A stretch of DNA of 27,806 nt from IMG/VR virus record IMGVR_UViG_3300034073_000264, positions 1-27,806 of that record, one strand, 5' to 3'. Below, piece by piece: positions 1 through 27,806 of the stretch. The notes beneath the pieces were generated by a model, which was not told the origin of the DNA, did not search any database, and worked only from the letters and a program-made list of their open reading frames with translations. Position 1 is the stretch's first letter; each line of letters starts with the position of its first letter. The DNA is from a virus. Made by a program: the position numbers and the translations under genes.

Positions 1-266
1 TTGCAGCAAGCCTGGGCGCTAGCATCGTAGACAATGCACCAGCACCAACAAATAGTTGGGCATCTACATCAGCACCATCAGTAGGTGGCGGACGTGCTTG
101 CCCTCACGGCAAGATGACTGCTATCCAAGGCACAGGTAAAGACGGCAAAATGTACCGTGGTTATTTCTGCCCAGCACCAAAAGGTGCATTTGATAAGTGC
201 AAGAATGACTATGTTCGTATTGGCACAGCCGATTGGAATACATTTGTTCCTGACCAAGTGAAGTAA
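1..266 (+). CDS. C-terminal end of a zinc-ribbon protein (partial, 5' end outside window)
   Basis: The frame is open from base 3 to a TAA at 264-266, giving 87 visible residues; the start lies outside the window. The visible part has a Pro/Ala/Ser-rich linker and then a likely zinc-binding module: CPHGKM, about 20 residues, YFCPAPKG, then a fourth Cys (FDKC). The pattern Cys-x2-Gly...Cys...Cys resembles zinc-ribbon tails seen in phage replication or recombination proteins, but I cannot name the family. Its stop overlaps the start of the helicase gene (TAATG), so the two are probably translationally coupled and co-transcribed. A DNA-binding accessory to replication is a guess from context only. 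The minus-strand frames over this segment are shadows. Confidence 0.6.
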   Translation, partial: AASLGASIVDNAPAPTNSWASTSAPSVGGGRACPHGKMTAIQGTGKDGKMYRGYFCPAPKGAFDKCKNDYVRIGTADWNTFVPDQVK

Positions 267-1084
267 TGAGAACACTCAAGCGAAGCATCAGCAAAGCAGA
301 GGTAGGTGGCGAGCCATTGCCACCCGCCTTTGCGGCGTTTGAGCGAGCAGGAATTATCCTGCGCCGTGCAGAAATTACGATGATTGCTGGCACCCCAGGT
401 GCAGGTAAGTCATCAGTTGCACTGGCAATCGCAGCCAGAGCCAAAGTTCCTACGCTGTACTTCAGCGCAGATACCAACGCTCACACTATGGCTATGCGAT
501 TAGTTGCTATGTCTAGCCGTATCTCACAGCAAGCAGCAGAGCAGTTACTAAAGCGTGACCCAGCCAAAGCAGAAGAAGTTCTTGTTATGAACAACCACTT
601 GTTCTGGTCTTTTGAATCAACACCAACTCTAAAAGATTTGGATGATGAGGTCAGTGCATTTGAAACTGTATGGGGCAGAAGTCCTACGCTTATTGTTGTA
701 GACAATCTAATGGATATAGCAATGGATGGACACGAAGAATTCCAAGGTATGCGTGCAGCAATGAAGGAGTTAAAGTATCTTGCAAGAGATACCAACTCAG
801 CCGTGCTTGTTCTGCACCATACTAAGGAAGGCTTTGAGGGCTATCCCTGCCAGCCACGGTCAGCCATTCAGGGTCTGGTCAACCAGATACCAGCAATGGT
901 TCTGACTATCGGTCAGATGAAACAAGGTGATGATACCTATCTCTGCGTAGCCCCAGTCAAAAACAGATACGGGCGAGCAGACCAGACAGGTAACAACTAT
1001 GTCAGCCTTGCTTTCAACCCTGACAATATGTATTTAGACGATGTTCAAATTAAGTATGCACAGGAGACTATGTATGGAGACTAA
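266..1084 (+). CDS. DnaB-like replicative helicase core (RecA-fold ATPase)
   Basis: This 272-aa protein has the RecA/DnaB ATPase motifs in order: Walker A GTPGAGKS (residues 42-49), Walker B LIVVDNL with Asp146, a sensor-like VLVLHHT (residues 180-186), and PVKNRYGRADQTG near residues 230-242. The last matches the basic KNR-type motif near the C terminus of DnaB-family helicases, which carries the arginine finger. Family knowledge: such proteins form hexameric rings that unwind DNA at the fork. It lacks the N-terminal primase-interaction domain of full DnaB (about 450 aa), so it is a core-only form; a RepA-type or KaiC-like ATPase is the alternative. The start ATG overlaps the upstream stop, and the primase genes lie just downstream, which fits a replication operon. 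Confidence 0.85.
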   Translation: MRTLKRSISKAEVGGEPLPPAFAAFERAGIILRRAEITMIAGTPGAGKSSVALAIAARAKVPTLYFSADTNAHTMAMRLVAMSSRISQQAAEQLLKRDPAKAEEVLVMNNHLFWSFESTPTLKDLDDEVSAFETVWGRSPTLIVVDNLMDIAMDGHEEFQGMRAAMKELKYLARDTNSAVLVLHHTKEGFEGYPCQPRSAIQGLVNQIPAMVLTIGQMKQGDDTYLCVAPVKNRYGRADQTGNNYVSLAFNPDNMYLDDVQIKYAQETMYGD

Positions 1085-1253
1085 GATTTGGGAATACTCT
1101 TTCGCAAAGGAAGATGTAGAAACTCTACTTGCCAAACCAATAACAGATGGTGAGTGGAACATTATTGTTGATGAACTATATAACAATGATGAGTTATACA
1201 ATGCACTAACTACGCTAGCAATGGATGTAGCAAGGGATGTATTAAATAGTTGA
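1074..1253 (+). CDS. Small acidic hypothetical protein
   Basis: This 59-aa product begins METKIWEYSF. I chose the ATG at 1074 over the in-frame ATG at 1041 because AGGAG (1062-1066) sits 7 bases upstream and because it overlaps the helicase gene by only 11 bases. The protein is rich in Asp, Glu and Asn, with a hydrophobic pattern that suggests two or three helices, and no motif I recognise. It ends at a TGA (1251-1253) that overlaps the TTG start of the nuclease gene. Its position between helicase and nuclease suggests an accessory role in replication, but no function can be read from the sequence. Confidence 0.65.
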   Translation: METKIWEYSFAKEDVETLLAKPITDGEWNIIVDELYNNDELYNALTTLAMDVARDVLNS

Positions 1254-1594
1254 GTAGCGCAGCCAAACGCAAGGGTAGCCAAGCAGAACGAGATGTAGTT
1301 GCTTGGCTTAAAGCCAATGGCTTTCCGTATGCAGACCGCAGATTAGCAGGAGCAACGCTAGACAAAGGCGATATTAGCGGTGTGCCAGGAGTTACCATTG
1401 AGATTAAGAACCACGCTAAGATGGACCTTGCAGGTTGGACAGCAGAGTTAGAAGTAGAGATGAAGAATGACGGTGCTTGGACAGGCACAGTTCTACACAA
1501 ACGTAAAGGCAAAGGAGATGTCGGACAGTGGTATGCGACTATGCCAGCACAGGTATGGTTAGAACTACTTAAGAAAGCAGATGGAAAAACATAG
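1250..1594 (+). CDS. Holliday-junction resolvase-like PDDEXK nuclease
   Basis: This 114-aa protein has the hallmarks of small PD-(D/E)xK nucleases of the Hjc-like type common in actinophages. An early Glu lies in QAERDVVAWL (residues 11-20), followed by KGDISGVPGVTIEIKNH, whose Asp, Glu and Lys (D-x9-E-x-K) form the metal-binding core. The basic segment HKRKGKGD follows, and the length is typical. Family knowledge: these enzymes cleave branched DNA such as four-way junctions during replication, recombination or before packaging. The start is TTG at 1250, overlapping the previous stop; no better start lies nearby. The 3' end overlaps the primase start by 14 bases. Resolvase specificity is inferred; the nuclease fold is the firmer call. 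Confidence 0.75.
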   Translation: MSSAAKRKGSQAERDVVAWLKANGFPYADRRLAGATLDKGDISGVPGVTIEIKNHAKMDLAGWTAELEVEMKNDGAWTGTVLHKRKGKGDVGQWYATMPAQVWLELLKKADGKT

Positions 1595-1973
1595 CATTGC
1601 AGCCTACCTACAATACGTAGGCGCCACCCTGCCTAGGGAGGGCAGTGGTTGGCGCAAGATGAAATGCCCATTCCACGGAGACAAACACGCATCTGCTGGT
1701 ATCAATTTTGAACAACAAAGATTTAAGTGCCACGGATGTGGCATTGGTGGAGACGTATACGATTTGATTATGGAAAGAGAAGGAGGCAACTATCGTGAGG
1801 CTGTCAAATTCGCAGAGACAATTTCTCCTACAGGCAACGACAGAATACGCCCAGCACATACATCTAGCAGCAGACTATCTCGCAACAAGGGGTCTGTCGG
1901 TAGACGAAGCCAGGAAGTTTCATTTAGGAGTAGTGGAGAATCCATTGCCAGGTCACGAAGGCTACAAGGGTAA
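1581..1973 (+). CDS. DNA primase, CHC2 zinc-binding domain (first part of a split primase)
   Basis: The 130-aa frame opens with a DnaG-type zinc ribbon: KCPFHGDKH and RFKCHGCGIGGDVYDLI, giving ligands C29, H32, C50 and C53. The helix EREGGNYREAVKFAE (residues 66-80) then matches the end of CHC2 domains. After about residue 81 the sequence turns into low-complexity Ser/Arg text unlike any primase, while the natural continuation of a primase appears in the +1 frame (gene at 1795). The frame-0 tail to 1973 is therefore probably not functional protein, unless the two parts are made separately. Family knowledge: the zinc domain recognises the template and helps start RNA primers. See the finding on the split. 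Confidence 0.8.
   Translation: MEKHSIAAYLQYVGATLPREGSGWRKMKCPFHGDKHASAGINFEQQRFKCHGCGIGGDVYDLIMEREGGNYREAVKFAETISPTGNDRIRPAHTSSSRLSRNKGSVGRRSQEVSFRSSGESIARSRRLQG
1780..1786 (+). promoter_or_regulatory. Internal Shine-Dalgarno inside the primase zinc-domain gene
   Basis: AAGGAGG is a near-perfect anti-16S match. It lies 8 bases upstream of a GTG (1795) that opens the frame encoding the TOPRIM half of the primase. It also encodes Glu-Gly-Gly of the zinc-domain frame, so coding constraint could explain part of it. It is either a true internal initiation site or a stimulator of +1 frameshifting, as the internal SD is in bacterial prfB, although the prfB spacing to the shift site is much shorter. 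Confidence 0.55.
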
Positions 1974-2424
1974 GTTAGTTATCCCATACAGCACCCCATC
2001 AGGGGTGGTTGACCTGCGGTTTCGTTCTATCCACGGTGAAGACCCTAAGTACATTGGCTTGCCAGGAGCAAAGACAACTATGTTCAATGCCCAGGCTGTG
2101 TTAAATGCAGACCAGTATATCTGTGTCACCGAAGGTGAGATTGACTGCATAACAGTAGTAACTAAGACAGGACACCCAGCCGTTGGCATACCAGGTGCTA
2201 ATAATTGGAAGCCCTACTACACAAAAATACTTGACGACTTTGATACAGTTATAGTCCTAGCAGATGGTGACAATCCAGGGCTGGAGTTCGGTAAGAAAGT
2301 CAGCAGAGAATTAGGAAATGTAAACATAGTTCAGATGCCAGAAGGACACGATGTTAACAGCATTGTGCTACAGGAAGGAGTACAATTTTTAGATGAGCGA
2401 ATTAGAAAATGTATCAATGGATGA
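1795..2424 (+). CDS. DNA primase, TOPRIM catalytic domain (second part of a split primase)
   Basis: The 209-aa frame contains a helical segment (QATTEYAQHIHLAADYLATR, then GLS) that matches the linker of DnaG-type primases, then a TOPRIM fold. VTEGEID (residues 111-117) carries the catalytic Glu113, LADGDNPG (155-162) is the DxD metal site, and a late GHDVN segment follows. Family knowledge: this domain polymerises the RNA primer. The frame is +1 relative to the zinc-domain gene and overlaps it from 1795 to 1973. The GTG at 1795 has a strong SD at 1780-1786, so separate synthesis is possible; a frameshift fusion is the alternative. The first 12 residues from GTG do not look primase-like. No C-terminal helicase-interaction domain is visible. 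Confidence 0.82.
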   Translation: MRLSNSQRQFLLQATTEYAQHIHLAADYLATRGLSVDEARKFHLGVVENPLPGHEGYKGKLVIPYSTPSGVVDLRFRSIHGEDPKYIGLPGAKTTMFNAQAVLNADQYICVTEGEIDCITVVTKTGHPAVGIPGANNWKPYYTKILDDFDTVIVLADGDNPGLEFGKKVSRELGNVNIVQMPEGHDVNSIVLQEGVQFLDERIRKCING

Positions 2425-2704
2425 ACTTGAGGGAGTCTGGATACACATAGCAGCCAACCCTCTACTAATGGGTATCCCACTATCAGAAAAGAAGGGCATT
2501 GATTTACTCTCAGCCCTGCACGATATATACAAAGCAATGAAAGTAGATTTAGAGTCAGCACAGATGCTACTCACCCTACTAGCCAATGTCTTAGTGGCAG
2601 CAGCACAAGGTGATGGCGATGAGGTAGTAGAAGAAGTAATAGTTATGGAAGCAATGGCAGCCTTTGATAAAGAGTCAAAGAAGGTATTAGATGAAGGACG
2701 TTAA
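2393..2704 (+). CDS. Acidic hypothetical protein
   Basis: This 103-aa product starts MSELENVSMDELEGVW, within the last 32 bases of the primase gene. It is strongly acidic and appears mostly helical, with a hydrophobic helix near residues 55-72 (QMLLTLLANVLVAAAQ) that is amphipathic rather than clearly membrane-spanning. An Asp/Glu-rich segment follows (GDGDEVVEEVIV). A purine-rich AGGAAGGAG lies at about 2371-2379, rather far (13 bases) from the ATG, so coupling to the upstream gene may dominate initiation. No family recognised. It overlaps the next gene by 14 bases, as expected inside a compact phage operon. Confidence 0.6.
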   Translation: MSELENVSMDELEGVWIHIAANPLLMGIPLSEKKGIDLLSALHDIYKAMKVDLESAQMLLTLLANVLVAAAQGDGDEVVEEVIVMEAMAAFDKESKKVLDEGR

Positions 2705-2996
2705 AGACCTAGATGACATCTTAATGGAACTTAAAATAGTTATGGTGCAGAAGCACCAAGACTACGGACCATACAACATAGCCCACGCACCAGGTGGACC
2801 TACCAATGGTTTACTAGTTCGGATGCACGACAAGATGGAACGGCTAAAGAATCTTTACTACAACCGCAAAGGCAACACGCCGAACTATGAAAGTATAGAA
2901 GATTCCTACAAAGACCTGGCAAACTATGCCATAATAGGACTATTGGTACAAAGAGGTCAATGGGAAGGCACAGGTGGAGGCAGAATACCTAACTGA
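2691..2996 (+). CDS. Nmad1/DUF1599-like nucleotide modification-associated protein
   Basis: The 101-aa sequence fits the Nmad1 (DUF1599) pattern: KHQDYGPYN near residues 21-29, GLLVRMHDKMERLKNL in the middle, then an ESIEDSYKDLANYAIIGLL helix. These correspond to the conserved DYG, DK-x-x-RL-x-x-L and E-x-x-x-D-x-x-x-D-x-x-x-Y elements. Family knowledge: such all-helical domains relate to MazG-type nucleotide pyrophosphohydrolases and often sit in phage DNA or nucleotide modification operons. Here it could control a nucleotide pool for replication. No modified-base synthesis enzyme is seen nearby. The ATG at 2691 overlaps the upstream gene by 14 bases. The family assignment is by motif memory, not search. 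Confidence 0.7.
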   Translation: MKDVKDLDDILMELKIVMVQKHQDYGPYNIAHAPGGPTNGLLVRMHDKMERLKNLYYNRKGNTPNYESIEDSYKDLANYAIIGLLVQRGQWEGTGGGRIPN

Positions 2997-3627
2997 ATAT
3001 GACGCATTAGTAGCGTCATTAGCCATTGAATACCACAGAAAGTATCCGATGGTAGAGAGTCTAGATATACAGCAGATTCTCTGGTTATGGTTCATTACCC
3101 ATCCCACAAAATATGTAGAGTGGTCAGCCCTTGACCAAAAAGATAAAGACAAACTAATAGCCAAGTCTCTCCGCAATGCAGCCGTTAAGTTTTGCGAGAA
3201 GGAAAAAGCAAAGGCAGTCGGCTACGAGTTGCTTGACCTGTACTACTACGACTCAACAGTGGTTGAGGCATTTCTGCCTAGCATTATCTCTGAGTCATAT
3301 GAAATACCAACCAAGATTAAAGACTTAAACTTTAAGTTCAGCAAGGCAGAGAACAGCAGTGATGGCAACAACTGGCTAGTGTTAAGGTCAGATATAGCCA
3401 ATGCTTTCTTTAAACTTACAGAGGCTAAACAAAATGTCCTGCGGGTCAGGTTCAGCACAGAGAATAATGAGTGGAACCTTATAGCAAAGGACTTAAAGAC
3501 AACACCAGATGGTGCCAGGATGAAAGTCCAGCGTGCTATCAACTCACTTATCCGCAACCTAGGTGGATGGAGACCATACCAAGATGAAGATGTACCACAG
3601 ACAGAGCAGGACGATGACGGAGAGTAG
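2974..3627 (+). CDS. Sigma-70-like RNA polymerase factor
   Basis: In this 217-aa protein the C-terminal quarter (residues about 147-197) reads like sigma region 4. KLTEAKQNVLRVRFSTENNE is followed by WNLIAKDLKTTPDGARMKVQ and RAINSLIRNL, which is a helix-turn-helix with the loop and basic recognition helix expected for -35 binding. The N-terminal half is helical with Trp/Tyr-rich text (IQQILWLWFITHP) that may correspond to a degenerate region 2. The last 15 residues are acidic. The start is GTG at 2974, overlapping the previous gene by 23 bases; no later Met gives a better start. Role inferred: redirecting host RNA polymerase to phage promoters. Alternative: an HTH transcription factor without core-polymerase binding. 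Confidence 0.65.
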   Translation: MEAEYLTEYDALVASLAIEYHRKYPMVESLDIQQILWLWFITHPTKYVEWSALDQKDKDKLIAKSLRNAAVKFCEKEKAKAVGYELLDLYYYDSTVVEAFLPSIISESYEIPTKIKDLNFKFSKAENSSDGNNWLVLRSDIANAFFKLTEAKQNVLRVRFSTENNEWNLIAKDLKTTPDGARMKVQRAINSLIRNLGGWRPYQDEDVPQTEQDDDGE

Positions 3628-3856
3628 AGACATCCGTGACCTGCTACATAAGATTGATTACAGCAGGGCAATGGACCTACGCGGTACACCTCTTGAGGTG
3701 TGTCCGTGTGGCTGTGACATCTTTGTAATGCTAGGTGGATTCATAGATGGAGAGTTAGGTTTTTACTTTACAGATGGCGAGTGTGCAGGTTGTGGCAGTA
3801 TGGTCACACTACCTACACCAGTAGACGGAGAGGAGTTGGGTCTTGCCGACCTATGA
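3614..3856 (+). CDS. Small zinc-ribbon hypothetical protein
   Basis: This 80-aa product begins MTESRDIRDLLHKIDYSRAM. I preferred the ATG at 3614 because it follows a purine-rich AGCAGG and leaves only a 14-base overlap with the sigma-like gene; an upstream in-frame start at 3563 would overlap it by 65. The centre carries CPCGCDIF and, about 30 residues on, CAGCGS. These are two Cys-x-Cys or Cys-x2-Cys knuckles typical of a zinc ribbon. The C terminus is acidic (DGEELGLADL). Similar little zinc proteins are frequent in actinophage replication regions, function unknown. A role in nucleic-acid or protein binding is inference. Confidence 0.65.
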   Translation: MTESRDIRDLLHKIDYSRAMDLRGTPLEVCPCGCDIFVMLGGFIDGELGFYFTDGECAGCGSMVTLPTPVDGEELGLADL

Positions 3857-4016
3857 ATTTAGTTGCCCGATATGCAACGTAGTTGTAGAGCAGACTTTCT
3901 CAGTCTATTCAGACCACGCTATGTGGTGTGAGAAATGCAAGGTGCAGATGGATAAGCAGTTCAGTGCAGCACCAGTCCACTTTAAAGCCAAAGGCTTTTA
4001 CAAAACAGGAGATTAA
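3843..4016 (+). CDS. FmdB-type zinc-ribbon protein (57 aa, TTG start)
   Basis: Starting at TTG 3843 the frame reads MPTYEFSCPICNVVVEQTF, then WCEKCKVQMDKQFSA near residues 30-44, and ends GFYKTGD. The opening Pro-Thr-Tyr-Glu-Phe-x-Cys-x2-Cys, a second Cys-x2-Cys and the terminal GFY-x-(T/S)-D are the signature of the FmdB putative regulatory zinc-ribbon family. AGGAG at 3831-3835 lies 7 bases upstream and supports the TTG. The gene overlaps the preceding one by 14 bases. The family's biochemical role is poorly defined; in phages it is a common accessory gene. At 57 aa it is easily missed by ORF callers. Confidence 0.75.
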   Translation: MPTYEFSCPICNVVVEQTFSVYSDHAMWCEKCKVQMDKQFSAAPVHFKAKGFYKTGD

Positions 4017-4181
4017 ATGAAAAAGAAATTTGATGTAGGTAACAGGAGTATCTTCATATTAGTAGGGTATAGATGGAATAGATTCGGTCTAGGATTCTGT
4101 ATCAGCAAATGGGGAATTGATATAGACTTAAGCGTAGTGTGGCTAACTATTGAATGGTGGCGTAATGATTCCGAAATTTAA
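4017..4181 (+). CDS. Small Trp-rich hypothetical protein
   Basis: The ATG at 4017 follows the preceding TAA directly and opens a 54-codon frame that starts MKKKFDVGNRSIFILVGYRW and ends in TAA at 4179-4181. AGGAG-like bases (acaggag, 4005-4011) lie about 6 bases upstream. The product has a basic N terminus, alternating hydrophobic residues and five Trp, which suggests a small beta-sheet protein rather than a transmembrane helix. No family recognised. It overlaps the WhiB-like gene by 17 bases (4165-4181). Tight packing and a good RBS are the only support that it is translated. Confidence 0.5.
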   Translation: MKKKFDVGNRSIFILVGYRWNRFGLGFCISKWGIDIDLSVVWLTIEWWRNDSEI

Positions 4182-4437
4182 GAACAGACCAGCCTGCGAA
4201 GGTACAGACCTAGACTCCTGGTTTCCAGAAACTTACAGTTCAATAGACACTCCGTATATGAAACGGATATGCTCTACCTGCCCAGCAGAAAGCGAATGTC
4301 TTAGTTACGCATTAGAATATAACGTCATAGGAATATGGGGAGGAACAACTGCTTCCGACAGGGATAGGATACGCAAGGCAAAAGGTATTGTTGCCAAGCC
4401 GATATTCCCAGAATGGGAACTTAGACGCCGTGCTTGA
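4165..4437 (+). CDS. WhiB-family iron-sulfur transcriptional regulator
   Basis: The 90-aa product from ATG 4165 has four Cys in WhiB spacing: C11, then CSTC at 36-39, then C45. The GIWGG turn follows at residues 56-60, and a basic C-terminal tract (RDRIRKAKG) after that. The upstream motif D-L-D-x-W-F-P is also typical. Family knowledge: these small proteins bind a 4Fe-4S cluster and act with the primary sigma factor; they are restricted to actinobacteria and their phages, and the mycobacteriophage TM4 WhiB is known to affect host gene expression. GGTGG at 4156-4160 sits just upstream; an in-frame TTG at 4150 is an alternative start. It probably reprograms host transcription or helps late expression. 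Confidence 0.9.
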   Translation: MIPKFKNRPACEGTDLDSWFPETYSSIDTPYMKRICSTCPAESECLSYALEYNVIGIWGGTTASDRDRIRKAKGIVAKPIFPEWELRRRA

Positions 4438-4888
4438 ACCAATACGTCAGGTAAACGCAGATGGTAAGCGGGAGAAGATTGCAGCCAAGGCGCTTGAGGA
4501 TTACTTCAAGGGTTGGAAGTTGTATGGCACACCCCGCTTTTACTTCTCCGACTTCCACATCTGCTTACAGTGGGGCAATGGTAGAGAGAACTACATCGGA
4601 GATTTAGAAGTCAAATGGTTGAAGACAGATAGCAGTAGACCTGCCATCTTTCCTTTCAACAAACTACAGCAGATGATGATAGCCCCACCATACACAGACA
4701 ATGAACACTCATACCATCGCATCTGTTTTAGATTCGCAGACGGCATAGCAATGGTGCCAGCCAGAGAACTAGCCCACATAGAACCAGTCTTTCATACTAG
4801 ATGGGACACGCAAGAGCGTGACCTAGTAGTATTCTTTGATGCTAGAAGCAGACCCGAATACTGGCACAACCTAGTGATAAACGAATAG
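4430..4888 (+). CDS. Hypothetical protein ending the rightward operon
   Basis: I place the start at GTG 4430 (MLEPIRQVNADGKREKIAAK, 152 aa), which overlaps the WhiB stop by 8 bases. An in-frame TTG at 4388 would add 14 residues with no clear gain. The sequence is rich in aromatic residues, His and Trp (FYFSDFHICLQWGN, YHRICFRFADGIAMVPAREL, PEYWHNLVI), which suggests a compact alpha/beta or beta fold. There is no signal peptide and no motif I recognise. It is followed directly by two hairpins, so it is probably the last gene of the rightward early transcript. Confidence 0.65.
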   Translation: MLEPIRQVNADGKREKIAAKALEDYFKGWKLYGTPRFYFSDFHICLQWGNGRENYIGDLEVKWLKTDSSRPAIFPFNKLQQMMIAPPYTDNEHSYHRICFRFADGIAMVPARELAHIEPVFHTRWDTQERDLVVFFDARSRPEYWHNLVINE

Positions 4889-4889
4889 A

Positions 4890-4918
4890 TTTCTGCTGGA
4901 AGGGGAAGCCAGCAGAAA
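4890..4918 (+). other. Perfect 10-bp hairpin after the rightward operon
   Basis: TTTCTGCTGG (4890-4899) and CCAGCAGAAA (4909-4918) form a perfect 10-bp stem with a 9-base loop, starting two bases after the upstream stop codon. No U-tract follows on the + strand, so it may protect the 3' end of the mRNA or assist the next hairpin rather than terminate alone. Confidence 0.7.
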
Positions 4919-4926
4919 AACAATAG

Positions 4927-4958
4927 ACCCTGCTCTATCGGACGGGCAGGGTTTATTT
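4927..4958 (+). terminator. Probable rho-independent terminator
   Basis: ACCCTGC (4927-4933) pairs with GCAGGGT (4946-4952) and is followed by TTATTTAT. This is the usual shape of an intrinsic terminator for the rightward operon, although the U-tract is interrupted by A. The stem can gain two more pairs, one of them G-U. The RBS of the methyltransferase gene begins only 3 bases later. Confidence 0.65.
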
Positions 4959-4969
4959 ATAGGAGGACT

Positions 4970-5542
4970 ATGGAATATCCAAATTGGTTTGAATCTACAG
5001 AGGCTGTAGATAACTTTAAGAATATGTTATACCACTATAAAGGTCAGCCTAATTTAAAGTTCCTACAACTTGGCGTATACACAGGTGATGCTTCAGTATG
5101 GTTACTAGAAAACATACTGACAGATGAAACCTCTAAGTTAATTGATATAGATACCTGGCAGGGTAGCGATGAAGAAGCCCATAAAGATATGGACTTTGAG
5201 GAAATCTACAAGTTTTACCTCAGCCGAGTAGAGCCATACGGTGACAGAGTAGAGAGCATACGGGCTACGACTATGGATTTTTTGCGCTATGAAGCACTAG
5301 AAGAATACGACTTTATCTACATAGATGCAGACCACACAGCGACAGGAGTTCTACTAGATGCCGAACTATCTTGGGACATCCTCAAGCAGGGTGGGATAAT
5401 GGCATTTGATGACTATGAGTGGAAGTCAGGCAAGGGTAATAACTATGACCCAGCCCCAGGCATTAACTCTTTCCTAAACAGGCACAATAAGGAGTTCAGA
5501 GTCCTACATCAGGGCTGGCAAGTCTGGATAATCAAGGGCTAG
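4970..5542 (+). CDS. Class I SAM-dependent methyltransferase (Methyltransf_24-like)
   Basis: This 190-aa protein has the Rossmann methyltransferase motifs: LQLGVYTGDAS (residues 32-42, motif I, SAM binding), IDIDTWQGSD (58-67, acidic post-I), DFIYIDADHTATGVLLDAEL (114-133), and GGIMAFDDY (141-149). The IDADH...GGxxxxDDY pair is characteristic of the Methyltransf_24 family, seen in phages and in glycan or small-molecule methylation loci. The substrate is unknown; there is no N6-adenine DPPY or cytosine PC motif, so DNA methylation is unlikely. AGGAGG at 4961-4966 gives a strong RBS. The gene is isolated between terminator hairpins at both ends, unlike its overlapping neighbours. Sugar or surface modification, perhaps related to the phage glycosyltransferase, is speculative. 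Confidence 0.8.
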   Translation: MEYPNWFESTEAVDNFKNMLYHYKGQPNLKFLQLGVYTGDASVWLLENILTDETSKLIDIDTWQGSDEEAHKDMDFEEIYKFYLSRVEPYGDRVESIRATTMDFLRYEALEEYDFIYIDADHTATGVLLDAELSWDILKQGGIMAFDDYEWKSGKGNNYDPAPGINSFLNRHNKEFRVLHQGWQVWIIKG

Positions 5543-22280: not shown

Positions 22281-23149
22281 ACTACTGGCGCTCCCATCTG
22301 GTCAAGGAATACCAAAAAATCAAAGTTTTGTTTATAGCGCATCACATCTGGCAATTCTGTTTCTACTTTTTTGCCTACTTCAGCCTCTACTTGCGCTTGG
22401 GTAAACGGTTTAGTAGTAGTTCTAACAATCTTGCCCCCAGCCTCTTTAGTAGTAGTAAGGGTTCCCTCTTTAATTTGTTTTACATAACGGTCAGTTTCTT
22501 GCTGAATAAAGTCTTCAGTACCAGTTGTCATATCTGTTTTGCCACGAACTACACCACGAACAATAGCCTCAACTACATCCCTATCCATAAGATTAATGTC
22601 TTGAACTGGAAGATTTTTGTCGCCAGCGCCAGCGCTACCTAGACTACCTAACCAACTTTTAAACGGACTGAACTTAGTATTACCTTCAATAGTATAAGAC
22701 TGAACCTGAGTAAGGCTATGATTTCTTGCTGCGTCTAAAATAGCCTGATTAAATGCTGTTTCGTTTTTGGTTTTATAATCAGTCTCAGAAAGAAAATTCT
22801 TATCTAATAATTGCTGACGTAGTACTTCAAGATTACCCTTAAAGTTAGTTTTAATAGACTTAATGACCTGTGAGCCATACTGTTTAGTAAAGCCAAGACC
22901 ATCTGGTGCTACCCAAAAGAAAACTTCAGGTCTTTCTCCTGTTGGTTTACCCTTACTATCAACTGCTATTTCATACAAAATAAGATTTCTATTTTGGTCA
23001 GTACCAACCTTTAATTGACCATTATCTAATCCTATGTCGCCAAGTACTCTTTTAAGGTCATCTAAATGTTTTTTATTAGCCGTAGCAGCAGCATTAGCCG
23101 ATGCTTCACCGCGTGTCTTGGCTTCTTCTGGTGACTTATCTACCGCCAA
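22277..23149 (-). CDS. Hypothetical virion-region protein (290 aa, TTG start)
   Basis: The start is TTG 23149 (MAVDKSPEEAKTRGEASANA), 6 bases after an AAAGGG, and it overlaps the giant gene by 14 bases. The sequence is helical and charged with a beta part (NLILYEIAVDSKGKPTGERP). Segments DVNEAIVRGVV-like and QRPFTQAQVEAEVGKKVETE follow. The end is YKQNFDFLVFLDQMGAPVV. The visible blocks VLRQQLLDKNFLSETDYKTK and AILDAARNHSLTQVQSYTI suggest a helical core. No family recognised. Likely a minor virion protein by location between the giant protein and the 301-aa protein. Confidence 0.55.
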   Translation of the reverse strand: MAVDKSPEEAKTRGEASANAAATANKKHLDDLKRVLGDIGLDNGQLKVGTDQNRNLILYEIAVDSKGKPTGERPEVFFWVAPDGLGFTKQYGSQVIKSIKTNFKGNLEVLRQQLLDKNFLSETDYKTKNETAFNQAILDAARNHSLTQVQSYTIEGNTKFSPFKSWLGSLGSAGAGDKNLPVQDINLMDRDVVEAIVRGVVRGKTDMTTGTEDFIQQETDRYVKQIKEGTLTTTKEAGGKIVRTTTKPFTQAQVEAEVGKKVETELPDVMRYKQNFDFLVFLDQMGAPVV

Positions 23150-26100
23150 CGTATGCCCTTTCTACGGAAGCACCCACCACATCGCGGGAGTACTTGTTTA
23201 ACATAGGTACAAATATCAAACGGGTTGCTTCTTTAACGGCTGGGTCAAATACCAACTGTTCAAGAACCGCTATTACTTCTTCTTTCATACGCTTACGGTC
23301 ATCACTAAACGTATACAATTGCTTATAGGATGGGTTGGTTGAGTAATCAACAAAAGCCTGAACTTCATTAATTGCTAACCGCATAGCATTTCTAGTGGCA
23401 TTTGGTATAGGCGCACTAGCATCATCTACCGCGCCTCTAAGGTCACGGAACATCATCTTTAAATCCCGACCAGATATATTGTCATCTAATGAATCTTCTA
23501 GTTCTGGATTAGATAGTAGCAACGACTGTTGCTCTGCATCTGCTAAAGCAATTAGGCTGGCACGCTCTTGATAGTCAGTAGACGTAGCCAATCTTTCCAC
23601 TAACGCATCATTAATTGCATAATACTTTTCTTTATCTCTGGCTATTTGAACTTTGTTTAAATACTCTCTGAAGTCAGCCTGTTCAACTAACCCTTGTGCT
23701 TCCATCCAGGAATATATATCTGGGTTGTATTCTCCAACTTTGGGAGCAAATACAAAACCAATACCTGAATCTTGATACTCATCTAGAAATCGTCTATTAT
23801 TAGTAGACCAATCTTTTAATTCGTTAGTCTTGGCTATAACTGTTTTAAATGCTTTATTTGTTTTAGGTATTGTATATACTGATTTGCCTGGATTATTACC
23901 AATAAACATAGCAACAGCCAACTCAAATGGGTTGGCTACTTCAGGGTCTGCTTTAATAACACCTTGATATACATCCCAGAAAGCACTGGTCCAAGTACTG
24001 ATACCAGTCTCTTTAATAAAGTCAGGTAATCCCTTACTATCTTTTAAACTTGGGTATGCAGGGCTACCAAACAAACCTATAATTGCCTGTGCAGCAGTTA
24101 CGTTATTAGCAGCAACTTTGACGTTCTGTATATATCTTGTTTTTTCTTTGCTAGTTGCGTTATCTGGTAAACCTTTGCCAAAGGCTTCCATATAATTAAC
24201 TGCTTGATACCAGGCATTAGCCTTATTTCTATTACGCTCCGCAGGGGCTAAAGTATCCCAAGCCGTTGTAGCCAACATTGGGAAAGCCGTTCTTAAAGCA
24301 TCACCGACATCAGTATTTTGACCAATATGACCCATAGCAAATGTGTCTAAATAATTGGCTACTTCGTTGGTGTAAGGATAAATTCTATCTTCCCAAGTTT
24401 GTGGCAAAAAAGCACTAAGCACTGGTAAATCACGCAAGAATCCTTTAACTGCGGTAATGCTTATTCCTGCAAGTGGTCCAGCAAAGGCTGGCTGTCCAGC
24501 ATCAGGAGCAAAAGATGGGTTAATTAATCGGAACTTAAAAGAAAACTCATTAAATGAGCCAACCTTGTAGTCAACATTAAATGCACCTAGCACCTTTTGT
24601 GTGGCTGTATTCATAACAATATCCGTAGGTACTGTTAGATAGTCATCGCCATTCTCATCCTGGTAAACAGAACCTATGTTTTCTAATCCATAGTGCAAAA
24701 GCCGTAAACGCATAAGTGCTCTTGGTCCCTCATTTGCATAAAGACGATAAACACGGCGCTGGAAATCTTCGGTAGCACGGAAGAATCTGCCTACATAGCG
24801 GATAGCCAGAGCAAAATTAGAACGAATACTTGGATTATCTACAAACTCAAGCACAGAATCTGTAGCCATATTAATTGCTATATTGGTTACCTGCTTATCG
24901 GCTGCTTCATCAGCAAACTTTCTAGCAGTATCTGGGTCTATATTTGGATTTGCATCCAGTAATCCTCTGTAATGGCGGTCAGATAAAAACTTTTCGTAAG
25001 GAACTAAATCATCTAGGGCTTTATTTACAGCCACACGCATAGCAGGCAGACGGAAAAATCCCGTTACCTGACGGTCCATCATCTCAAGAACTTTATCTGG
25101 GAACCGTTCAAACCATTTATCTATGGTGCTAAGGTCTTCCTTTAGCGCATCCATATCAGATACTTTGCCGTTAGATACAAGGCGCGTATTTATATAACCA
25201 GAAGTAGGACGCTTACCTACTGTAGCGTCATTAAATTCTTTCCAGGTTAAATTATTAGCAGCGCGTGACCAAGCAGTTGCTGCTGGCATACCCTGACGTG
25301 GGGCTGCCTTAATCACATCAGCATATTTACGTTGCATTAAGTCATACAAGTTATCATTAAAGCCATCTGCGCTACCGTGGAAAGCAAAACGCATATCATT
25401 CAAGATACGCTCTGCATAAATACGGGCTATCTCTGGGTCGGACACACCTTGTTGACGGAAATAAACGGTCTCACCCCAGTTAGATAGGGCTGCCTGTAGT
25501 CTTTTAGCATCCAGTACGTCATAAAAAGCGCTAACTTCATTGAATGTTGCGCCCATCTGCTCCATAAGTTCAGTACGTGCATTGGCAAAATTAGTACTTG
25601 GACGTAATGCTCCAAAGAAATCATCATTACGTAACCCGTTATTGTTAAAAAATACACTTACTGGGTCTAAATAATAATTTCCAGGTAGTTTAAGTTGGTT
25701 AAATCCAAAACGAATTAGGAAGTTGTCCCACATAGCAACGCCTAATTCTTGTTGACTTAACTTTTCTATTTCTTTAGGCGTATAAAGTGGTGACCGCTCT
25801 AATCCCAACTCTTTAATAAACCTAGTTAGTTGGTCTATATCAAATACAGACTCATAAAAATCTCGGTCCATTCTGCCTACGACTAAATCACGGGCAGCAA
25901 TAGAGGCTGTTAAGCCCTCATTAAAATTAGAATTATTGCGAAGAACTCGTTTTAAATTTTGCCATTCTTTATTGTCATCAGTAAATTTATAGATTTCTTC
26001 AATTCTGCTGATAATGCCTTCTTTAATAAATACTGGCTTTATCTCAGATAGTGGTATTTCGTATCCAACTTCTTTAGATTTTTTAACTCTAATTTTTTCA

Positions 26101-27806
26101 ATAATGTCGGCTTGTTCTGCTGAAGTAAGAACTTTCCGTGGGTCTAATGGTCTACCGTCTACAGTAATACCCATCTTATTTGCTATATAGTATAAAGAAC
26201 CTTTATAAGGACCAATAGCAGCACCACTGCCAGTAACCGTCTGCATAGCCTTAATATCTTTTTGAAACTTACTGGCTACTAAATCAAGAATATCCGTAAC
26301 TGGCTTAGTTAAATAATAAAAGAAACCTTCATCTACGTTAGTTCTAATACCTAAACGTGGAGCCAGGGTATATGCAGCCCAGTTATTATTCCAAAGAGTA
26401 GCAAATCTGCTCCTACCAATACCGTTAAACAAAAGCAGAAAGTTTTTAGCAGGAGTGCCCTTGGCACGTTCATCTAATCTTGCCTTTGAAGATAGTTGAT
26501 AAATAGTATCAAACGGCAACTGCTTAATACCTTTACGTAATTGAGATGGCTCAATAGCACCAGTAGCAGCAAGGGTTGGCGTAAGGTTATTAAAGGCTAC
26601 TGCCATAGGATGCATCTGAGCCGCAATATTATCCGCAATAGGCATATCTACAACTGGAGTAAATCCAGCCTGCCCGTTATATGTATCTTGAAGAATACGT
26701 TGAATATCATCTTCAGGAACATTCATACGCTTCATAAAGGCGTACTGCATATTACGTACTGCTGTCAATTGAATATCTAATGGCTCATCTAAAAGCATCA
26801 GAGTAACAGCATTGGCTATATTTTTAGGTAGCACCAAACTAGCAGTATTGCGAATATTGTCAGCAGTTTCAATAGCGTTTTCGCCAAACTTAATAACTCC
26901 AGGTAGTCTGCTGGCAGCAACGCCCAACTTAAGCGCTAAACGCCGTGCTTTACCAACATCCTCTTGTAGCGCAAACAATTCATCAATCTGTGGATTGAGC
27001 AGTTTATTTTCTTCATCGGCAACTTTAGTAACAATTGACATAGCCTTAATGGCTTCTGCATCGCCCTTAGCAAGAATCTCTTTAGTAGTTATATCTACTT
27101 CGCTTGTTGGATTAAATACTGAATAAGCAACTCGGTGCATAGCCGAAGTAAGAGTTCTGCTTTTGCGAGCATAAGGAATACCATTACGGCGGAAAGAAAT
27201 ACCATTAACTCTGCCATTAAGCATAAGATTAGCATCATCTACGTGGGTGAAAAACTTTTGTGCACTAGCAGCATCAAAGGCTTTAACTTCACCAGTAGTA
27301 AGGGTTTTTATTACTGGTTCGTTATACCACTCAGGAAAATCAAATCTAATAGACTCAAGTATTGAGGCTTTAGCAGTAGGAGATTTAGCCTCTGCATAGG
27401 ACTTTAAGCGTGGTCCTAGTTGGTCATCCCAAAGAGTTTTAATTTCAGGTTCATTAAATAACCAGGCATAACCTTCTTCAGTACCTTTGCGCTGAGATAC
27501 AAACTTAAACTGTTCAGCAAGGCGTTGACCTTTACTTTTAAATGCAGCCTGCTGAAATGCCTCACGGACTCCAACGCGTATACCGCCAACACCCTTAGCA
27601 AGTGTCTTGGCTACGGCTGGTAATCCTAAACCTATGTAAGTAAGTGGGTCAATAAACACTGTGTAAAAAGCATCTATAGTTCCAGATACTTTCTTTTTAA
27701 CTTTTATTTCTTCGGCTTTAAGTATTGCTTTGCCACGTTTGCTTTCAGGCGATACGCCCTCTGGCAAAACAATTCTTGGCTGAACACCTAATAATCTTTG
27801 GGCTAC
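23136..27806 (-). CDS. Giant virion protein, probable internal/ejection protein (5' end outside window)
   Basis: The frame is open from the right edge, so the gene is truncated at its 5' end: 13 residues (VAQRLLGVQPRIV) precede the internal TTG at 27767 and 1,556 residues are visible. It is helix-rich, with DTASLVLPKNIANAV-like hydrophobic stretches, charged linkers and no Cys clusters. One hydrophobic region near residues 35-55 of the post-TTG part (FYTVFIDPLTYIGLGLPAVA) could be a membrane-active segment. Very large helical proteins in the structural arm of short-tailed phages are usually ejected internal proteins; a tape measure would be the alternative for a long-tailed phage. A lytic domain might lie in the missing N terminus. 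It ends overlapping the 290-aa gene by 14 bases. Confidence 0.6.
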   Translation of the reverse strand, partial: VAQRLLGVQPRIVLPEGVSPESKRGKAILKAEEIKVKKKVSGTIDAFYTVFIDPLTYIGLGLPAVAKTLAKGVGGIRVGVREAFQQAAFKSKGQRLAEQFKFVSQRKGTEEGYAWLFNEPEIKTLWDDQLGPRLKSYAEAKSPTAKASILESIRFDFPEWYNEPVIKTLTTGEVKAFDAASAQKFFTHVDDANLMLNGRVNGISFRRNGIPYARKSRTLTSAMHRVAYSVFNPTSEVDITTKEILAKGDAEAIKAMSIVTKVADEENKLLNPQIDELFALQEDVGKARRLALKLGVAASRLPGVIKFGENAIETADNIRNTASLVLPKNIANAVTLMLLDEPLDIQLTAVRNMQYAFMKRMNVPEDDIQRILQDTYNGQAGFTPVVDMPIADNIAAQMHPMAVAFNNLTPTLAATGAIEPSQLRKGIKQLPFDTIYQLSSKARLDERAKGTPAKNFLLLFNGIGRSRFATLWNNNWAAYTLAPRLGIRTNVDEGFFYYLTKPVTDILDLVASKFQKDIKAMQTVTGSGAAIGPYKGSLYYIANKMGITVDGRPLDPRKVLTSAEQADIIEKIRVKKSKEVGYEIPLSEIKPVFIKEGIISRIEEIYKFTDDNKEWQNLKRVLRNNSNFNEGLTASIAARDLVVGRMDRDFYESVFDIDQLTRFIKELGLERSPLYTPKEIEKLSQQELGVAMWDNFLIRFGFNQLKLPGNYYLDPVSVFFNNNGLRNDDFFGALRPSTNFANARTELMEQMGATFNEVSAFYDVLDAKRLQAALSNWGETVYFRQQGVSDPEIARIYAERILNDMRFAFHGSADGFNDNLYDLMQRKYADVIKAAPRQGMPAATAWSRAANNLTWKEFNDATVGKRPTSGYINTRLVSNGKVSDMDALKEDLSTIDKWFERFPDKVLEMMDRQVTGFFRLPAMRVAVNKALDDLVPYEKFLSDRHYRGLLDANPNIDPDTARKFADEAADKQVTNIAINMATDSVLEFVDNPSIRSNFALAIRYVGRFFRATEDFQRRVYRLYANEGPRALMRLRLLHYGLENIGSVYQDENGDDYLTVPTDIVMNTATQKVLGAFNVDYKVGSFNEFSFKFRLINPSFAPDAGQPAFAGPLAGISITAVKGFLRDLPVLSAFLPQTWEDRIYPYTNEVANYLDTFAMGHIGQNTDVGDALRTAFPMLATTAWDTLAPAERNRNKANAWYQAVNYMEAFGKGLPDNATSKEKTRYIQNVKVAANNVTAAQAIIGLFGSPAYPSLKDSKGLPDFIKETGISTWTSAFWDVYQGVIKADPEVANPFELAVAMFIGNNPGKSVYTIPKTNKAFKTVIAKTNELKDWSTNNRRFLDEYQDSGIGFVFAPKVGEYNPDIYSWMEAQGLVEQADFREYLNKVQIARDKEKYYAINDALVERLATSTDYQERASLIALADAEQQSLLLSNPELEDSLDDNISGRDLKMMFRDLRGAVDDASAPIPNATRNAMRLAINEVQAFVDYSTNPSYKQLYTFSDDRKRMKEEVIAVLEQLVFDPAVKEATRLIFVPMLNKYSRDVVGASVERAYVGGR

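What the first reader, a model, noticed from the sequence alone, without database searches (positions are those of the whole stretch)
1581..2424. DNA primase split across two reading frames with a strong internal Shine-Dalgarno
The CHC2 zinc domain is in frame 0 and the linker plus TOPRIM domain in the +1 frame. Frame 0 still looks like primase to about base 1817 (KFAE) and frame 1 from about 1831 (QATTEYAQ), so a fusion would need a +1 shift within roughly 1818-1830 (ACAATTTCTCCTA). An AAGGAGG at 1780-1786 also offers internal initiation at GTG 1795. Three explanations compete: programmed +1 frameshifting, two separate subunits, or a one-base error or mutation. The good RBS argues against a simple error.
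Basis: partly seen in the sequence, partly recalled or inferred. Interest (0 to 1): 0.72.

Follow-up and report, generated by a model that had tools for sequence, protein, structure and literature searches.

The report
Split phage primase in overlapping genes
This phage encodes its DNA primase as two separate proteins from two genes that overlap in different reading frames, a layout shared by hundreds of relatives that infect actinobacteria, so the frame break is a real and ordinary gene arrangement and not an error or a frameshifted fusion.

Summary
A CHC2 zinc-finger ORF (1581-1973) and a DnaG-type RNA-polymerase/TOPRIM ORF (GTG 1795-2424) overlap by 179 nt in the +1 frame, with AAGGAGG at 1780-1786.

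It is not an error. All 80 closest viral relatives keep the same frame offset, overlap, GTG and a GGAG-containing SD. Across seven viral scans, one bacterial-genome scan and named phages, 481 loci (partly redundant) carry the two domains as separate ORFs. No intact close relative fuses them.

It is best explained as two genes and two subunits:
- The TOPRIM frame is under selection from GTG 1795, upstream of the proposed shift zone.
- The zinc frame is under selection up to its own stop at 1973; TOPRIM fourfold-site diversity is 0.13 in the overlap and 0.48 after it (p=2e-6).
- A Streptomyces-phage group has the genes 13-15 nt apart in all three relative frames, with AAGGAGG between them.
- Twice, an HNH endonuclease ORF lies between the genes.
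- The proposed shift zone has no slip-prone codon or stimulatory structure.

The arrangement is already reported in cluster A phages ("two overlapping reading frames", "overlapping DNA primases"). I found no experimental test. Rare frameshifting in addition is not excluded.

The parts
1581..1973 (+). Gene 1: primase zinc-binding subunit (CHC2), 130 aa; ordered domain to about residue 82, then a basic disordered tail
   Evidence: Pfam Zn_ribbon_DnaG; phrog_360; AlphaFold2; zinc ligands C29, H32, C50, C53
1780..1786 (+). Shine-Dalgarno AAGGAGG of gene 2
   Evidence: sequence; an SD of 5 or more bases in 81 of 81 group A loci incl. the window; its bases are constrained at zinc-frame third positions
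1795..2424 (+). Gene 2: primase catalytic subunit (RNA-polymerase domain with TOPRIM), 209 aa, GTG start, +1 frame relative to gene 1
   Evidence: Pfam Toprim_2; phrog_849; AlphaFold2 pLDDT 91.7; Foldseek to DnaG cores
1795..1973 (+). 179-nt overlap coding for both proteins; both frames under selection
1794..1835 (+).
   Evidence: no slip-capable codon in 1818-1830

Best explanation
This is a natural two-gene, two-subunit DnaG-type primase. Gene 1 makes a small zinc-binding (template-recognition) protein with a basic, disordered tail. Gene 2, which starts inside gene 1 in the +1 frame from its own Shine-Dalgarno, makes the RNA-polymerase/TOPRIM catalytic protein. The two are made as separate polypeptides and presumably reunite at the phage replication fork with the phage DnaB-like helicase, the zinc subunit acting in trans on the polymerase subunit. 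Shown here by sequence and evolution: two ORFs, an independent start, both frames selected to their own ends, and genes that can be separated. Inferred: association of the proteins and primer synthesis in trans.
For: (1) Identical +1 offset, 179-nt overlap, GTG and GGAG-containing SD in 80/80 close relatives. (2) 481 split loci in all, partly redundant, including cultured phages of Mycobacterium, Gordonia, Rhodococcus, Streptomyces and Cutibacterium; no intact fusion among close relatives. (3) Constraint on the TOPRIM frame begins at GTG 1795, before the proposed shift zone, and those first residues form part of a confident helix. (4) Constraint on the zinc frame continues to its own stop at 1973 and then vanishes, repeated in groups B, C, D and F; a +1 fusion would not need this tail. 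(5) In SqueakyClean-like Streptomyces phages the zinc ORF ends 13, 14 or 15 nt before a TTG with AAGGAGG, giving all three relative frames; the tail of the free version (SRYGGGHR...GGGYVPAWKRK) resembles the overlapped one in Sitrop (SRYGGSRK...GGGYQPRWRRS). (6) Two separate lineages, L283 and L430, carry an HNH endonuclease frame between the genes. (7) Primase zinc domains are reported to act across subunits (Corn et al. 2005, cited in PMC6163395).
Against: No protein data: neither product nor their complex has been seen. The 42-nt block 1794-1835 is more invariant than the rest of the overlap, which double coding explains but does not prove. Cutibacterium phages lack a recognisable SD before the second ATG, so initiation there needs another route such as translational coupling or a weak site. 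The +1 offset is kept in most lineages, though overlapping genes tend to freeze their offset anyway.
Confidence: 0.88

Rival explanations
1. Programmed +1 frameshifting within about 1818-1830 (or elsewhere in the overlap) makes a single fused primase, alone or as a minor product beside the separate proteins.
For: The +1 offset is kept in most lineages. The block 1794-1835 is almost invariant. Homologous primases elsewhere (DnaG, T7 gp4) are single-chain. A slip-capable GGG codon precedes the zinc-frame stop TAA in the window.
Against: Both frames are under selection before and after the zone. No re-pairing codon lies in 1818-1830 and no slippery motif is shared between groups. No stimulatory structure. 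Relatives have the genes 13-15 nt apart in all three frames or an HNH frame between them. A shift at the GGG-TAA would lose the conserved first 58 residues of the polymerase subunit.
Confidence: 0.08
2. One-base sequencing or assembly error, or a recent frameshift mutation in a single-chain primase gene.
For: None found beyond the frame break itself.
Against: 80/80 close relatives from different metagenomes and hundreds of distant ones, including cultured phages, carry the same break. Both frames are under purifying selection.
Confidence: 0.01
3. Only the catalytic subunit is a working primase; the zinc ORF is now a remnant or has another role (for example as a DNA-binding regulator).
For: Several GenBank annotations omit the zinc gene. 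No tested activity for either protein was found in the papers searched.
Against: Zinc ligands are invariant or nearly so across 24 diverse members, the frame is under selection to its own stop, and the gene is kept next to the catalytic gene in almost all loci, including those without overlap.
Confidence: 0.03

Closest known systems
Cluster A mycobacteriophage primase pair (D29 gp58/gp57; HarryOW gp54/gp55)
   Same: Zinc ORF followed by TOPRIM ORF, +1 offset, overlap of about 146-191 nt by chosen start, 45% identity in TOPRIM from residue 2. Reported as 'two overlapping reading frames' (PMC8032465) and 'overlapping DNA primases' (PMC12613952).
   Different: The start is usually TTG or ATG (GTG in some), and host and flanking genes differ. 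Several GenBank entries start one gene late or omit the other.
Streptomyces Arquatrovirinae-type primase pair (SqueakyClean gp38/gp39)
   Same: Same two proteins in the same order, beside a DnaB-like helicase and a Holliday junction resolvase.
   Different: Most have lost the overlap: 13-15 nt gap, any relative frame.
Bacterial DnaG and phage T7 gp4 primase
   Same: Same CHC2 zinc ribbon and RNA-polymerase/TOPRIM fold.
   Different: Both domains on one chain. DnaG has a C-terminal helicase-binding domain and T7 gp4 a fused helicase (general knowledge); neither is encoded in these two ORFs. T7 also makes an in-frame internal-start form without the zinc domain (general knowledge).

Membership tests
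Split (two-ORF) actinophage primase | CHC2 ORF directly upstream of a separate TOPRIM primase ORF | tested here: met
Split (two-ORF) actinophage primase | +1-frame overlap of roughly 120-190 nt (the usual form) | tested here: met
   179 nt here; 122-191 nt in the other overlapping groups by chosen start
Split (two-ORF) actinophage primase | TOPRIM protein homologous along its whole length to the cluster A protein | tested here: met
   45-46% identity over residues 2 to 203-204 to D29 and Sheen
Split (two-ORF) actinophage primase | Products are separate polypeptides in vivo | not testable with these tools
   supported only indirectly, by selection on both frames and by separated relatives
DnaG-type primase | CHC2 zinc ligands | tested here: met
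   C29, C50, C53 invariant and H32 nearly invariant
DnaG-type primase | TOPRIM acidic motifs (EGE and DxD) and RNA-polymerase-domain fold | tested here: met
   E113, E115, D117, D159 invariant and D157 nearly invariant; Foldseek to 1eqn/1dde at E of 2-3e-10
DnaG-type primase | Both domains on one polypeptide | tested here: not met
   separate ORFs in this and all intact close relatives
DnaG-type primase | RNA primer synthesis | not testable with these tools
   needs biochemistry
Programmed +1 frameshift gene | Conserved slippery codon with stimulatory signal at the junction | tested here: not met
Programmed +1 frameshift gene | Upstream frame loses constraint after the shift site and downstream frame gains it there | tested here: not met
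   both constrained from 1795 to 1973
Programmed +1 frameshift gene | Fused product detected | not testable with these tools
   no proteomic data available here

The most novel reading that the evidence does not exclude
The pair is an obligately two-polypeptide DnaG-type primase. Its template-recognition zinc subunit works only in trans and carries a conserved basic tail that docks it to DNA, helicase or the polymerase subunit, so zinc and polymerase subunits can vary in ratio or be exchanged independently during infection.
Probability: 0.55. Interest if true: 0.5.

Novelty: new member of a known kind. Interest (0 to 1): 0.33.

Why it matters
It removes a candidate frameshift or sequencing-error case and shows that a large group of actinobacterial phages supplies the primase zinc domain as a separate protein. 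Action of that domain across subunits has been described for DnaG, where both domains sit on one chain, so these phages offer a natural system in which trans action would be the only way to work. It also shows that GenBank records can start the second gene too late (D29 gp57) or omit the first (DaVinci, Kimona, MissWhite, Colbster, Rockstar, Fabian).

Tried and rejected
Error or mutation: rejected, since 80/80 close relatives match. Frameshift fusion: no slip-capable codon in 1818-1830, no shared slippery site, no structure signal, no homopolymer of 5 or more. In-frame fusion in relatives: the only near hit, L444 (a Streptomyces genome), is a decayed copy with a stop after the first zinc ligands and the polymerase N-terminus in another frame; the other fused hits are distant DnaG-like proteins at 113 bits or less. 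Rfam elements in 1-5000: none. Literature on a tested split primase: the searches gave only annotation remarks. The pair was not folded as a two-chain complex, because the tool predicts single chains. A first script for the zinc-ORF coordinates stopped with an error and was rerun. One search was a report attempt that was not accepted because of its format.

Full report
What is there. The window is a 27.8-kb viral contig. At 1581-1973 an ORF of 130 codons carries a DnaG-type CHC2 zinc ribbon, and at 1795-2424 an ORF of 209 codons in the +1 frame carries the RNA-polymerase/TOPRIM part of a primase. They overlap by 179 nt. AAGGAGG at 1780-1786 precedes GTG 1795 by 8 nt. One detail differs: homology in the TOPRIM frame begins at about residue 2, not at 1831.

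It is not an error. All 80 nearest IMG/VR loci (87-100% identical in TOPRIM) have the same offset, the same 179-nt overlap, the same GTG and an SD containing GGAG. A tblastn search of phage records found 1496 with the TOPRIM protein; most of the listed ones show two 'DNA primase' genes, in phages of Mycobacterium, Streptomyces, Cutibacterium, Rhodococcus and Gordonia.

Survey of arrangement. With profile HMMs for the two proteins I classified loci from six viral scans plus 15 named phages: 393 loci with both parts, all split; 365 at offset +1, 25 at +2, 3 at 0. A seventh viral scan and one bacterial-genome scan added 72 and 16 split loci. The sets overlap a little, so 481 is an upper count. 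The only near relative with one ORF, L444, is a decayed copy in a Streptomyces genome.

Natural experiments. In the SqueakyClean-like group (38 of 42 loci) the zinc ORF ends 13, 14 or 15 nt before a TTG start with AAGGAGG, so the genes stand in all three relative frames without overlap. In L283 a complete HNH endonuclease ORF (Pfam HNH_3, E=2e-15) lies between the genes, and a similar HNH-like frame lies between them in L430, from Jiangella anatolica (judged by eye). These lineages cannot make a fusion by a short shift at the junction, yet both genes are kept.

Selection in the overlap. Among 34-35 relatives that differ by more than 3%, zinc-frame third-position diversity is about 0.39 upstream and falls to about zero at the codon containing the GTG. 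The TOPRIM frame is therefore selected from GTG 1795 on, before the suggested shift zone. At TOPRIM fourfold sites, diversity is 0.127 in the overlap (19 sites) and 0.480 downstream (33 sites), p=1.9e-6, and third-position diversity jumps from 0.15 to 0.45 just after the zinc stop at 1973. The zinc frame is therefore selected to its own end. Groups B, C, D and F show the same jump (from 0.16, 0.21, 0.29 and 0.03 to 0.48, 0.32, 0.55 and 0.10-0.19), and the non-overlapping group E has no such step. If TOPRIM codons are resampled synonymously, the zinc frame stays open to 1970 in 2.7% of cases.

Frameshift tests. No codon in 1818-1830 can re-pair in +1; slip-capable codons elsewhere (1806, 1890, 1923, 1968) were not seen as a shared motif among groups (1806 compared by eye, the others lie in stretches that differ between groups). 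Folding z-scores are -0.8 (1831-1930) and +1.2 (1740-1840). There is no homopolymer of 5 or more and no Rfam match. The 1794-1835 block is almost invariant, which two conserved helices read in two frames can explain; an added RNA role is not excluded.

Structure. AlphaFold2 gives the polymerase subunit a confident fold (pLDDT 91.7) that includes a helix at residues 5-19, half of which is encoded before the supposed junction. Its best PDB matches are DnaG catalytic cores, followed by T7 gp4. The zinc subunit is ordered to about residue 82, with a disordered basic tail. The tail of the non-overlapped Streptomyces version resembles that of the overlapped Sitrop version, so it is not merely a by-product of the other frame.

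How it most likely works. Two ribosome entry points on one mRNA yield a zinc subunit and a polymerase subunit. By analogy with DnaG, whose zinc domain can act on another subunit's polymerase domain (Corn et al. 2005, cited in PMC6163395), the zinc protein would select the template site in trans while the TOPRIM protein makes the primer next to the phage DnaB-like helicase encoded at 266-1084. Association and activity are inferred, not shown.

Novelty. [quoted passage not shown] I found no experimental work on it in the library searched, which lacks most subscription journals. The window is a new member of that known kind; the evolutionary evidence for two independent genes is the added value.

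Noticed in passing
window 4150-4437 (+): WhiB-type transcription factor gene (Pfam Whib, E=7e-14), which points to an actinobacterial host.
   Followed up: partly
window 2974-3627 (+): Sigma-K-like factor gene (PHROG 354) downstream of the primase, as in several cluster A phages.
   Followed up: no
window 1794-1835: 42-nt block almost invariant at all codon positions, tighter than the rest of the overlap; an RNA-level role beyond double coding is unresolved.
   Followed up: partly
L283:1694-1996 and L430 about 1480-1900: HNH endonuclease frames lying between the two primase genes in two lineages.
   Followed up: partly
D29 (L082), DaVinci (L085), Kimona (L083), MissWhite (L084), Colbster (L095), Rockstar (L096), Fabian (L088): GenBank annotation starts the second primase gene about 57 codons late (D29 gp57) or omits the zinc-finger gene although its frame is open.
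   Followed up: partly
C-termini of zinc subunits in L323, L089, L225, L357, L288: Tails end in a short aromatic/Pro/Trp/basic motif (such as GYVPAWKRK, GYQPRWRRS, KVPAWRSR), possibly a docking peptide; partly coupled to the other frame where genes overlap.
   Followed up: no
window 23136-27806 (-): Very long ORF, at least 1543 aa and open at the window end; not examined.
   Followed up: no
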